Source of the DNA: Tubulanus polymorphus | Taxonomy: Eukaryota; Nemertea; Palaeonemertea; Tubulaniformes; Tubulanidae | NCBI RefSeq assembly: GCF_964204645.1 | Contig: NC_134030.1 | Span: forward strand, 22,573,210 to 22,637,209 | Direction of reading: 5' to 3' | Length of the DNA stretch: 64,000 nt | Shown: positions 35,649 through 62,600 of the stretch, in pieces | Position numbering within the stretch: the first letter of the stretch is position 1 | Layout: every line of letters starts with the position of its first letter | The notes under the pieces: model-generated | Databases searched by the model: none | The model's input: only the letters and a program-made list of their open reading frames with translations | What the model was told of the DNA's origin: nothing | Program-made: the position numbers and the translations under genes

Positions 35649-38600
35649 ATGTCTAGTTTGGGTATACCGGATGGTTCCGGTGGTACCGGGCTGTCGTCTC
35701 AGCACGGCGGTATAGTCGACGAACACGGTCACGCAGCAGCAGCAGCAGCAGCTGGTCAGAATCCTACATCAGGAGGACTAGCGATACCGGCGGCGGCGGC
35801 ATCTCGCAGGAGACGGAGCGTCGTAGTCGGCATGCAAGCAGCTACTGAGACTATCAAAGAAAAACAGGCAAGGTCCCCTATATGTGTGGATTTACAGGTC
35901 TAAATAAAAATCAGAAAAAATGCCCTGACCATAAAAATGGATTTACGTAAAACCTATTGGTTTTAACTGATTCCCTGATTGTCAGGAACAGCCCCCTGAT
36001 CATAAAAATGGTTTTACAGAAGACCTGTAGATCGGTTTACTGATTCCCTGATTGTCAGGAACAGCCCCCTGATCATAAAAATGGTTTTACAAAAGACCTG
36101 TAGATCGGTTTACTGATTCCCTGATTGTCAGGAACAGTCCCCGACAAAAATTGGATATACAAAAGACCTATTGGTTTTTAATTGTCCCCTGAAACAAGCC
36201 CCTAAATAAAAATTGTATCAATTGTTTCTATGATATTGAATAAAAGATGTATTCTACACTGCACCCTGAAGGTTGAAAGATCCTGGTTTTTTCAATCCAC
36301 ATCTTAGTCAATTCAAAATTCTCAGAAAGTCTGATATTTTGAATGCAGGGTGCAGTTTTAATGAAAGTCAAAGATTAAAACGGTTCAATTTAAAATCGTA
36401 CTTATTGTTCATGGTATAAAGAGAATCCTACAATGATTAAATGAAAGAATAAGTTCCGAAAATGTTTCCTTGAATGTGATTCTCTTTATTGCGGATATAG
36501 TGTCTTATTAATGGTGAATATTGTTCATAGCCACTGGATGGACACATTGGATAAAAATCTTTTTGAAAATACTTTCTCAATGATATTGATAAGTGACGCT
36601 TATTTCTACATAGCTTGTTCTAGCAAAGGCGTCTCCAGGAATTTTCATAGGGGGTTCGAATAAGCATCAATCCAGTATCCATGCACAATGTCGGATGTTT
36701 GGTGGGCCTCCCCGAAAAAAACTTTGTGAAAATTGGAGGCTTTAGCTAGAGACGTTTTCCAGGCTCTTAATGAATCATTTAGAGTTAAAAAGCTAGTCAA
36801 ATTGGCAAGAAAAATCTCGAACATTGATTACATAGTAACTTGAGAAGCTAGCTATCTCGAAAAGGGGGTGCGTCCGCTACCCCTGCACCCCCTTGGGCAC
36901 GCCTATGTCTAGGATGGTGATCTAGGTAATGTAGGGGTAATGAAACTGGTCAACCCGTCAGAACCCTGTCAGAACCCCATCAGAACCCGGTCAGAACTGT
37001 GCAACTGGATCCACATTTAAGAGTTTGAATTTAATTCGAGACGTTGTTGTATTTTATTTGTAGGCACGAGCGCGTGATGCTAGAGAACGCAGGAGATTAC
37101 TACTAGACCCACCTCATAAAACTATTCTAGGATTAGTGGCTGATTTTCTGGGTTTAGACGCCGGTACCGTCGAGGAGTTTATTCTCGATACGGCTAACGT
37201 AAGTCTGATAAACACCGCGTTCAAAGTCAAAGGATCATTTTACGACTAAATTTCATGGGGATTTCGATCTTAAAGGTCGAGTTTACTGAGGCTCCTAAAC
37301 TTTGACTTAATTTAGAAGGAACTTCTTTTTTTAAGATTTTTTTTTGATGAACCCAAATTCTACTTAATAATAATTCACTGATTCCGTAGATATTCTCAGA
37401 TGAAATTTGCTTGACCGTAAAAATGGACAAATCCGTATTTTTAGTTTGTCCAATTTTTATGAACTTGATTTTGTTAAGATTCAGACCAGAACGTCTTTTT
37501 AACCCTTTCAGTGCTGGCTAATTAATATCTTATTGTGCTGGAGATAAATGTGGACGCACTGAAAAAATTTTAAAGCCGGTCCATTTGTGGGAAATGTTGA
37601 TAACTACTGCTACTGTGCTGAAATAGATTGTGCAAATTATATTTTTGAATTTCAGCAAATAGAATTGTTCAATAAGTTTATGATGAAGGATGGCTCGCGG
37701 TCGTTAATGTTCTACTATCAAGAGGCGGAGGTTCCCGGAATTGAAGGTCAGTTTCAGAAATGATCAGTAGCAATGTAAGAAGGGGGTTTATTCTGCTCTC
37801 GATGAATTGCGAATTAATGTCGGAAAATTTTGAAGTCTCTGAAAAATCTTGGAAATGTGTGAAAAATTCAAGAAAATGCCTGTGAATTATTTTGATGCAC
37901 TTTTTATGGCATTATAACTGTGTAGTCGAGATGTTGCTGCGTTAAGGTTTAAATCTGTCCAGATTGTGACCAGTAACTGCTAATATTATTGTGTCGCCGT
38001 GACCTGAAAAATTATTTGAACAAATCTGTTTGACGAAAATGTGAAAAATACAGGACCCAGTTCCACAGTTCTGTGTTAAGATTTGACTCAGACGTAACTC
38101 ATTGAAAATGAACTTATCGTAACTCAGAGTTAACTCTAACTCAGAACTGTGGAACTGGGTCCTGGTATTTTGTGGTGAAAAAAAATGTGAAAAAGCCAAA
38201 TTTTTTTAAGGGTCATGTGAAAATAATGTGAAAATTCCAAGAGAAAGAGTTCATCCCGTCTGTGACCCCTGTGTTGAGAAATATTGTTCTGGGCCCAGTT
38301 TCACGAAAAACTTTCACTTAAATTTTTGATTTAATTGCTATTGGTTACTTCATGTTTTCAATGAGGGCAACAATTTAAACTGTTCACGAAACCGGTGCCT
38401 GGTTTTAGATGAATGCGAATATTGCTAAAATCGGTTGCGTTGATTTCGTTTTCAGAATGCGGTCGAACGTTTGCGGGAGCGGCTAAAGGCTCTCGAATGA
38501 CGCGCGTGTTCATCACAGACGGCAAACGTGACCCCCTCGACAACATCAACGTTTACTTCCTGCGGACGAAAGTCGAGCAAGCGGTCAATTTGAGAAACGT

Positions 38601-59600: not shown

Positions 59601-62600
59601 GAACAAACGACGCACGATTTAACGAAAGTAGAACGAATCAAATACGAGACTCTCGTCACGATTCACGTTCATCAGAGGGATATCTTCGACGATCTGGTAA
59701 ACAATTGATGTTTTTTATTTCAGAGCTGCCCGGGACCTGGTTCCACAGTTATGAGTTAAGAGTCAACTCTTGAGTTAGAATCAGGATCCAGTTTCACAGT
59801 TGCGAGTTAGAGTTAACTCCGAGTTCAAGTTAGTTATTTTCGATGAGTTAACTCGGAGTTAAATCTTAACTCAGAACTGTGGAAGTGGGTTCTCGTCATT
59901 TTCAATGAATGATTCCGAATCAAATTCAGAAATGTGATCCTCGGTCAAGAATGTAATCAGTGACCTTTTTGGTTTTGTACCTTGGCCTGAAAAATGTCTG
60001 GAAGAATCAAATGAATATAATGTGAGCCAATTACAAGGATATCAAAAACTGTAAATTTTCGTACAACCAAACTTGGTAAATTCTCTGTAATTTGTATATG
60101 ATCGTTCTATTGATGACTTATCATCCAAATGATGACTTACACTTATGTGGTAAAATGATTTCAAATTGGGATTGAAAGAAGAGACAACTTCAGTAATGTG
60201 GCGACTTATCTAAACGATGATTTAACCGTGTCAGTCCTCCTGCCTTGTCTTTCAAGTAAAAATAAACCTTCCTTGAATTAATGATGAAATTGTGCCCTTT
60301 CAGATTAATTTGTAACTGAATATTTTGAACCACGAAATGTTAAAGACGTTAACGACAGATGTGTTTATACTTTGTAGACTCGAATGCATATAAAAACGCC
60401 GCTGGATTTCGAATGGTTGAAACAAGCGCGATTCTATTTTAAAGAAGACACCGATCAGTGTATTGTATCCATTACTGACGTCGATTTCAGTTATCAGAAT
60501 GAATTCCTAGGATGCACCGATCGTCTGGTCATTACACCGCTCACGGATAGGTCTGTTTCAACTATGAATATATGAATTTTATACGCGTTAAGATAGAAAT
60601 GTTTAAAATTTAGAGATTTTCATTAGAAACTCTGCCAGTTTACGATTAGGTATTAAACCTTGAAAATACCACAGGGAATTCCTCTTTTCAACTATAAATT
60701 TATGAATATCAGGGGCCGGTTGTATAGTCATGGCTTAGACTTAAGACAAGTCTAAGACCAACTTAGTTCTATAGACAATCTAACAACTTAAGACCAGTCT
60801 AAAGAATTAAGACCACTTAATTAAGTCACGACTGTGCAACCGGCCCCAGGTGACTTAGATGGACTCTGAAGCCAAAAATGGACATAGGCCCTAAATGATT
60901 AACTTCCGATGTTTCAGGTGTTATATAACATTAGCTCAAGCGTTAGGTATGTCTATGGGAGGAGCGCCGGCCGGGCCAGCCGGTACCGGTAAAACCGAAA
61001 CCACTAAAGATATGGGTAAAGCTCTCGGTAAATACGTGGTCGTTTTCAACTGTTCCGATCAGATGGATTTCCGCGGTCTCGGCAGAATTTATAAAGGTTA
61101 GTCATCAACCTGGTTCAAAGATAACAACCGAACTGTAGAAGTGGTTCTGATTCCAGTCAGTTGAAACATTGCAGATGAACTTGTAGAGACGGGAAAATAG
61201 TTTGCTTAAGGGCTTTTATCAGAAATTTACAACTCCTGAGATCCAGGGCTCAGTTCCACAGTTCTGGACCCGATACCACAGCAGTTCTAGAGCCATTTCC
61301 ACAGTTTTACTATTAAATTGTTGGTACAGAGTCGAAATCCGTTTAAACTGAGGAGTCAAATTTTGACCACTAATTGTTGTTCTTTGTGTCAGCTCGATTA
61401 AAAATGAATGTTTTGTAAATGTACTGATGATGTATATGTTATTTTGTAGGTCTAGCTCAGTCAGGTTCATGGGGCTGTTTTGATGAGTTTAATCGTATTG
61501 AACTACCCGTACTATCAGTAGCTGCACAACAGATTTACATCGTCCTGTCGTCGAAGAAAGAACGCAAGAAGGAATTTCTGTTTTCCGACGGAGATATGGT
61601 GTCGATGAACCCCGAGTTCGGAATCTTCCTTACAATGGTCAGTTCACAACACCCCTTCCTGCCCTCCCCCTCATAGCCAGATTTCATAGAAAGTGATTTT
61701 AAGACTCTCCCCTCACGTATACCCAATAAACCGATGGTCCTGGATTTGTGAAAGTGATTTATTTTCATGCTGTTTTGACACTTGTCTGAAATAATTATAT
61801 TTTGAAATATTGCAGAACCCGGGCTATGCCGGTCGTCAGGAGTTACCTGAGAATCTGAAAGTACAGTTCCGTACGGTAGCTATGATGGTTCCCGACCGAC
61901 AGATTATTATGAGGGTAAAACTCGCCAGTTGCGGTTTCCAGGAGAACATTTTACTCGCGCAGAAATTCTATACGCTTTACAAACTGTGCGAGGAGCAGCT
62001 TTCAAAACAGGTATGTACATCAGTGAGGAGAGACTGATCTACAGTAGACTGTGGGCTTGTCTCTGATCTACAGTAGACTCTACGCTTGTCTCTGATCTAC
62101 AGAAGACTGGGTGTTTGCCTCTGATCTTCAGTAGGCTTTAGTAGGAAAATTTAAGATATTTTGTCAGCCAGGCATGGACAATAAGAGGCATTCTGCTCTG
62201 TCCTCTCAAATAGTGGGTCTATCTATATTGCTTCTGAGATCTGGCAGTTCTGGATCGTCAACTATTGCCTTTAAGAGTAAAATTAACCATTCTGGTTTGC
62301 TTACCATTGATTCATGATGTGCTACCATTGATTCAATGAGATAAATGATAGAATCAATGTTTACCGAACGAGAATCAATGGATTCTCTTGTATTCCGAGT
62401 TCGGTGTATGGGTCTGAATTATATTAATGAGTGTTTTTATTTCCGGTATAATTGTAGGTTCATTACGATTTCGGTTTGAGGAATATTCTATCAGTATTAA
62501 GAACGCTAGGAGCTCAGAAGCGAGCGCGACCTCAAGAGACCGAATCGACGATTGTCATGAGAGTTCTACGAGATATGAATCTGTCAAAACTCGTAAGTAT

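What the first reader, a model, noticed from the sequence alone, without database searches (positions are those of the whole stretch)
38053..60847. Superfamily of foldback elements with shared end grammar but different interiors
Families A (AGTTTCACRAAAA), B (AGTTGCACAGTC), C (AGTTCCACAGTT) and D (AGTTGCTCAAAA) all begin GG(G)GCC or GGRCC and end with the complement. About twenty copies are scattered in this window, each 85-160 bp with no ORF and no confirmed target duplication. Interiors are also internally complementary. Such modular ends suggest one mobilising activity that recognises only the end word, or transcripts that fold as near-perfect hairpins and feed small-RNA pathways.
Basis: partly seen in the sequence, partly recalled or inferred. 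Interest (0 to 1): 0.75.

Follow-up and report, generated by a model that had tools for sequence, protein, structure and literature searches.

The report
Four MITE families of Harbinger transposons
The short hairpin repeats are miniature non-coding cousins of one known type of jumping gene (Harbinger, CWG-target type), and each main family carries the end sequence of its own, closely related transposase lineage, so the shared ends reflect common descent rather than a new kind of element.

Summary
In detail: about 25 copies in the window, and exact 16-base tips of A, B and D occur 482, 668 and 530 times in the 268 Mb genome against 0 for reversed controls. CWG plus GG-starting ends is the published NuwaI type of Harbinger (PHIS). 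Likely partners exist: a clade of Harbinger transposases in the same genome has these tips upstream of its first exon (23 of 39 stretches read). Beyond the shared tip, A, B, C and D each match a different subclade, and end type follows the transposase tree. One complete 3.37-kb element has 25/27 terminal repeats, CAG duplications, a DDE transposase and a Myb/SANT ORF. So these are MITEs of one Harbinger lineage; 'one activity reading only the end word' is not favoured. Side findings: family C's tip has become a mostly subtelomeric 20-bp satellite, and 21 of 62 duplications have mismatched W. Small-RNA function is untested.

The parts
38051..38164 (+). C-family MITE, CAG ... CTG flanks
   Evidence: inverted ends, genome copies, alignment
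38698..39083 (+). B-family MITEs, head-to-tail: 38698-38851, 38849-38992, and a partial third from 38989; neighbours share one CAG
41881..42013 (+). B-family MITE
60710..60849 (-). B-family MITE with CAG on both sides
35164..35288 (+). D-family MITE
4617..4814 (+). D-family copies (4617-4743 and partial 4746-4814)
40844..40943 (+). A-family MITE, abutting a C copy at 40943-41034
40943..41034 (+). C-family copy abutting the A copy
44322..44434 (+). A-family MITE
48900..49006 (+). A-family MITE, next to an A2-like stretch at 48777-48907 (-)
3014..3148 (+). A2 MITE: A-type ends, different interior
38289..38401 (-). A2 copy
54044..54164 (+). A2 copy
33697..33777 (+). partial A copy
62730..62810 (+). 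diverged A copy
51350..51444 (-). C-family copy
51834..52105 (-). B-derived tandem array
53909..54018 (-). C-interior 36-bp tandem array
59733..59890 (-). two C-family stretches
10688..11286 (.). inverted arrays of the C tip unit around a C-like centre (foldback-like structure)
46282..46990 (+). 20-bp tandem array of the C tip (CWG plus 17 bp)
58758..59292 (.). 20-bp C-tip arrays, + then -
39165..39715 (-). 46-bp tandem array containing the C word

Best explanation
Families A-D are MITEs (short, non-coding, cut-and-paste derivatives) of one lineage of PIF/Harbinger (PHIS) transposons that duplicates CWG, the type published as NuwaI. Shown: shared GGRCC(C)RGTT tip, CWG flanks, 3-bp duplication at most empty sites found, transposase genes carrying the same tips upstream, and, in the one complete element read, a DDE transposase and a Myb/SANT ORF. 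Also shown: A, B, C and D each align best with a separate transposase subclade beyond the tip. Inferred: the two proteins of each subclade bind the about 40-bp subterminal region, cut at the conserved GG tip and insert into a C-CWG-G-type palindromic target. Also inferred: the MITEs arose from the ends of their own lineage, and their internal complementarity comes from foldback-rich terminal regions of the parents.
For: Alignment of 20 fetched copies per family with flanks shows sharp ends and CWG. Of 84 copies, 3 could not be anchored and 6 were same-flank duplicates; 62 of the 75 left had CWG on both sides, 41 of those 62 with the same W (Fisher p 0.0075). Joined flanks matched the window or other loci across the junction for 21 of 77 copies; by my reading 15 rows are empty sites (about eight sites) and 11 of those 15 rows (about five sites) fit 3 bp with no gap at the junction. 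CWG and usually-GGG ends define NuwaI (PMC4482050, section 7). Tips are readable upstream of 23 of 39 transposase copies. A strict regex scored 17 of 29 against 0.49 expected and a maximum of 3 in 300 resampled sets (one of the 17, L155, is an unrelated repeat). End type on the transposase tree: 4 changes for 5 states, 0 of 20000 label shuffles as low; thinned to 10 rows, 149 of 20000. Outside the first 10 bases the own lineage ranks first for A (23 against 10 for the next lineage), B (31-23 against 11), C (24 and 14-12 against 11) and D (17 against 13). Complete element L123+L127: TIR 25/27, CAG/CAG, DDE_Tnp_4 in two exons, Myb_DNA-bind_5.
Against: 16 of the 39 clade or near-clade copies showed no tip in the stretch read. 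A right end was found for only one of six stitched copies. The A partner rests mainly on L166, a diverged copy on a long branch whose tip fails the strict regex; A2 has no clear partner. The D margin is modest (17 against 13). 21 of 62 duplications have mismatched W. The paralogous empty copies read CTT, not CWG, at the C and the L073 D sites, and 4 of 15 empty-site rows (A_L032, B_L043, B_L044, D_L072) do not fit exactly 3 bp. A and C tips begin GGC and GAC or GGT rather than GGG. Published NuwaI sequences were not compared. The tree rests on one exon (175 columns), deep forks are weak, and C has only two labelled rows in it.
Confidence: 0.93

Rival explanations
1. A single transposase reads only the shared tip and moves all four families.
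For: Tip and CWG target are common to all four families. Cross-mobilisation is known for rice Ping/Pong, whose TPases share 77% and ORF1 proteins 62% identity (PMC2836001, section 6).
Against: MITE similarity extends about 40 bp and is lineage-specific; end type tracks the transposase tree; exon-1 identity of L123 to the D, C and A lineages is about 41-48% over most of the exon (51-54% over part of it in L132-L134).
Confidence: 0.08
2. The elements multiply mainly as DNA hairpins (replication slippage or template switching), not by a transposase.
For: Strong hairpins; tandem arrays of tips; W mismatches restore complementarity.
Against: Dispersed copies, target duplications at empty sites, and a complete relative with transposase.
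Confidence: 0.03
3. The copies are kept as genes for hairpin RNAs feeding small-RNA pathways.
For: Predicted hairpins far beyond shuffles in A, C and D.
Against: Hairpin shape follows from MITE structure; no Rfam family reached its gathering score in 38000-61000. No expression data were available either way.
Confidence: 0.03
4. The four families belong to different superfamilies whose ends converged (for example hAT, suggested by CAGGG ends).
For: The CAGGG start resembles hAT ends (recalled).
Against: The duplication fits 3 bp and the leading CWG is the target; all four main families have Harbinger partners.
Confidence: 0.01

Closest known systems
NuwaI group of PHIS/Harbinger transposons (Han et al. 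2015, PMC4482050; abstract, passages and section 7 seen)
   Same: CWG duplication, GG-starting TIRs, DDE transposase plus Myb/SANT ORF
   Different: That section gives about 4.5 kb for autonomous candidates; the complete copy here is 3.37 kb, and A and C tips do not start GGG
Tourist-type MITEs such as mPing (PMC2836001; abstract and sections 6, 7, 11 seen)
   Same: MITEs of PIF/Harbinger moved by ORF1 and TPase; target preference extends beyond the 3-bp duplication
   Different: mPing duplicates TAA/TTA; here CWG
Harbinger3_DR with a 17-bp palindromic target around CWG (recalled; one full-text search for that target found no paper)
   Same: CCWGG-like centre and A-rich outer flanks
   Different: Not compared by sequence
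Tetris foldback element and Xmix MITE, whose TIRs became satellites (table rows and references of PMC9659126)
   Same: TIR-derived tandem repeats
   Different: Here a Harbinger-type tip of 17 bp plus CWG, in arrays that are mostly subtelomeric

Membership tests
NuwaI (PHIS/Harbinger) | CWG target-site duplication | tested here: met
   62 of 75 copies with CWG both sides, 41 of 62 with the same W; 11 of 15 empty-site rows fit 3 bp
NuwaI (PHIS/Harbinger) | TIR usually begins GGG | tested here: inconclusive
   B and D begin GGG; A begins GGC; C begins GAC or GGT
NuwaI (PHIS/Harbinger) | autonomous candidate with a DDE transposase and a Myb/SANT ORF | tested here: met
   L123+L127: PF13359 6.3e-09 and 1.6e-19, PF13873 8.2e-21; one element only, intactness not shown
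NuwaI (PHIS/Harbinger) | transposase falls in the NuwaI branch of the published tree | not tested
   published sequences were not at hand
MITE | short, non-coding, TIRs, many uniform copies, same ends as a full-length element | tested here: met
   only the B type has a relative complete at both ends
Tourist MITE | TWA duplication | tested here: not met
   CWG
hAT | 8-bp duplication | tested here: not met
   3 bp at 11 of 15 empty-site rows
FB-type foldback element | TIRs built of tandem subrepeats, mobile as a unit | tested here: inconclusive
   structure seen at 10688-11286 and partly 58758-59292; of the matches listed (a capped list) only the query itself spans both arms

The most novel reading that the evidence does not exclude
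The transposase lineage targets its own ends: the junction of two elements, GGYCC-CWG-GGRCC, is itself a good CWG palindrome. Repeated insertion at existing ends would build head-to-tail arrays that share one CWG, and the C-family tip (CWG plus 17 bp) then expanded into a 20-bp, largely subtelomeric satellite. In addition, the near-perfect hairpin lets the only mismatch of a fresh insertion, the central W of the two CWG copies, be corrected across the stem, giving CAG...CTG palindromes.
Probability: 0.3. Interest if true: 0.6.

Novelty: new member of a known kind. Interest (0 to 1): 0.45.

Why it matters
It turns a puzzle of shared ends with different interiors into a testable map: four MITE families and four transposase subclades in one genome, with a lineage-specific stretch beside a shared tip and target. 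That is a natural test set for which bases a Harbinger transposase reads and how far transposases cross-mobilise MITEs. The tip-derived satellite near chromosome ends suggests a short path from MITE to satellite DNA.

Tried and rejected
L081, the best DDE hit, has a CAGGGCCAGTT word but no mirrored end was found in the locus or in 7 kb of further flank, and it looks like an ISL2EU element (YqaJ-like and THAP-like ORFs by eye). Rejected. The word TGACAGGGCCAGTTTTTGGGC in L095, L106, L155 and L167 (L137 with one change) is a separate dispersed repeat. The first 24 DDE loci and 17 more, 41 outside the clade, show no mirrored pair of these ends within their 3.5 kb at up to 1 mismatch; 9 of the 41 had a lone pattern hit. 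Ends lying further out would have been missed. hAT was considered because of CAGGG and dropped when the 3-bp duplication appeared. A no-duplication insertion CW|WG was considered and dropped: it leaves one base too many at the A-in-C and D sites (by eye); D_L072 (CCG/CGG) fits 3 bp less well. The arrays starting near 10686 and 58754 gave no clear CWG pair at both outer ends (by eye). In one search, L132-L134 were listed under 'other' although their exon-1 matches place them in the clade. PMC9179366 (teleost Harbinger) was opened with a word search; the hits lay only in its reference list.
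Full report
Observation. The window is C6:22573210-22637209 of a 268 Mb genome in 77 contigs. The end words exist and pair as inverted repeats. The loose A word alone is not above chance, but A elements are: the 40 best-scored genome places are 95-100% identical to the window copy. Exact 16-base tips: A 482, B 668, D 530 in the genome, reversed controls 0. The window holds 30 family stretches, about 25 elements after merging. A-type ends occur with two interiors, A and A2. Predicted hairpins beat shuffles strongly in A, C and D and less in B.

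Boundaries and target. Twenty fetched copies per family plus the window copy were aligned with 100-bp flanks. Identity stops at GGRCC(C)RGTT, and the three bases outside are CWG. Of 84 copies, 3 were dropped because the anchors failed and 6 as same-flank duplicates, leaving 75. 62 have CWG on both sides: 16 CAG/CAG, 25 CTG/CTG, 16 CAG/CTG, 5 CTG/CAG. W agrees more than by chance (p 0.0075), yet 21 of 62 disagree. Over all 75 copies there are 22 W mismatches against 24 departures of any other kind at the six positions. The base outside CWG is C in 89 of 150 pooled flanks, and positions -4 to -6 are A-rich. Joined flanks hit the window or other loci across the junction in 21 of 77 cases. By my reading 6 of these are other element copies and 15 are empty sites; 11 of the 15 rows, about five sites, fit a 3-bp duplication with no gap there. 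The clearest are A elements inside a C element (L021-L023, L030, L034). Rows that do not fit exactly: A_L032, B_L043, B_L044, D_L072. The empty copy reads CTT, not CWG, at the C and the L073 D sites.

Known type. PMC4482050 (abstract, passages, section 7) defines NuwaI: CWG duplication, TIR usually GGG, DDE ORF plus Myb/SANT ORF, about 4462 bp, 16 animal genomes.

Partners. PF13359 gave 150 scored hits. The best 24 and 17 further ones outside the clade show no mirrored ends of this kind within 3.5 kb. L123 does: CAG, then a tip with 64/74 identity to B, then a transposase apparently split by introns. With its partner stretch L127 it is complete at both ends, about 3.37 kb: TIR 25/27, CAG on both sides, PF13359 in two exons and PF13873 on the other strand. 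I call the transposase HARBI1-like from recall only. A protein search with its exon 1 listed further members. Upstream stretches of 39 copies were read (L139 and L150 are one copy); 23 show a tip, 16 do not. In the scripted test 17 of 29 rows had a tip, 16 after removing an unrelated repeat in L155, against a resampled mean of 0.49 and maximum 3. Those 16 lie 194-384 bp upstream of the exon-1 match, 15 of them within 277 bp.

Which family goes with which lineage. Leaving out the first 10 bases, the best-scoring of 22 tips (L143 left out as truncated) were: A - L166 (23), then L159/L160 (16); B - L147, L130, L148, L150, L123 (31-29), then L135, L151 (24, 23), next other 11; C - L156 (24), then L132-L134 (14), L144 and L129 (12), next other 11; D - L142, L152, L153 (17), next other 13; A2 - none clear. 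On the exon-1 tree (31 rows, 175 columns, 13 of 28 inner branches starred) end types A, B (with type X, TTTCATAGACATG, nested in it), C and D group: 4 changes for 5 states, the minimum. 0 of 20000 label shuffles reach it, or 149 of 20000 after thinning to 10 rows. The A grouping has 84/93 support with a long L166 branch, and the B grouping 82/80; C has only L124 and L156 labelled there. Rows without a tip in the strict test fall with C (L165), D (L141) and A (L163).

Mechanism. Most likely cut-and-paste by the DDE and Myb/SANT proteins of each lineage acting on MITEs that kept about 40 bp of the parent's ends. Ping and Pong are the model; they cross-mobilise at 77% TPase and 62% ORF1 identity (PMC2836001, abstract and sections 6, 7, 11). 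Exon-1 identities of L123 to the other lineages are about 41-60%, so cross-mobilisation is open. Nothing was tested at the bench.

Side results. (i) The C tip unit, CWG plus 17 bp, is the repeat of 20-bp arrays; 1410 overlapping tip-dimer matches with up to 3 mismatches occur in the genome, reversed control 0. All 37 array places that I took from the capped list (window query and small contigs left out) lie within 2.1 Mb of a chromosome end (threshold chosen after seeing them). The capped list holds exceptions near C10:10979746, C10:11939995 and C7:15073977. (ii) Transposase exon-1 places that I took from the top sit mid-chromosome (42 places, median 0.87 of the half-length from the end, none within 2.1 Mb of an end); MITE medians are 0.08-0.35 (159 places; p 2e-18). 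Only best-scored copies were used, and some A copies look like segmental duplicates. (iii) 8 of 154 element ends abut another tip, against 38 of 8722 CWG sites in 46 loci; seven of the 8 are B rows and one of these (L049) is doubtful. (iv) L002 and L007 share flanks but differ in W on the left, so if they are one insertion, at least one change came later.

Literature. TIR- and MITE-derived satellites are known (PMC9659126, passages and table rows). In the listings I recognised no paper describing these families; four papers were opened in part and the other listed papers were not opened. Repbase was not available.

Noticed in passing
10146-10332, 10688-11286, 46282-46990, 58758-59292: 20-bp (and 40-bp) arrays built on CWG plus the first 17 bp of the C MITE; the genome arrays I listed are mostly near chromosome ends.
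   Followed up: partly
L001-L080 flanks: One third of the CWG duplications (21 of 62) have opposite W on the two sides, which makes the element plus target a full palindrome.
   Followed up: partly
198-414: Another inverted repeat (94-nt arms, 97%) whose relatives elsewhere host D insertions at the same position in L068, L073 and L079.
   Followed up: partly
22758-29575: Long AT-rich 118-bp satellite array in the part of the window with 25-33% GC.
   Followed up: no
L081 (C5:16211354-16211860 and flanks): ISL2EU-like element: DDE ORF with YqaJ-like and THAP-like ORFs, by eye.
   Followed up: partly
L095, L106, L137, L155, L167: A separate dispersed repeat with TGACAGGGCCAGTTTTTGGGC that mimics the end word.
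   Followed up: no
C1-C12: Transposase-coding copies in chromosome middles, MITEs in arms, C-tip arrays near ends, for the best-scored copies.
   Followed up: partly
8181-9131 and 43239-43640: An open frame that looks like a seven-helix receptor and an exon that looks like dynein heavy chain, by eye.
   Followed up: no
55680-56338: 56-bp tandem array, 11.7 copies.
   Followed up: no
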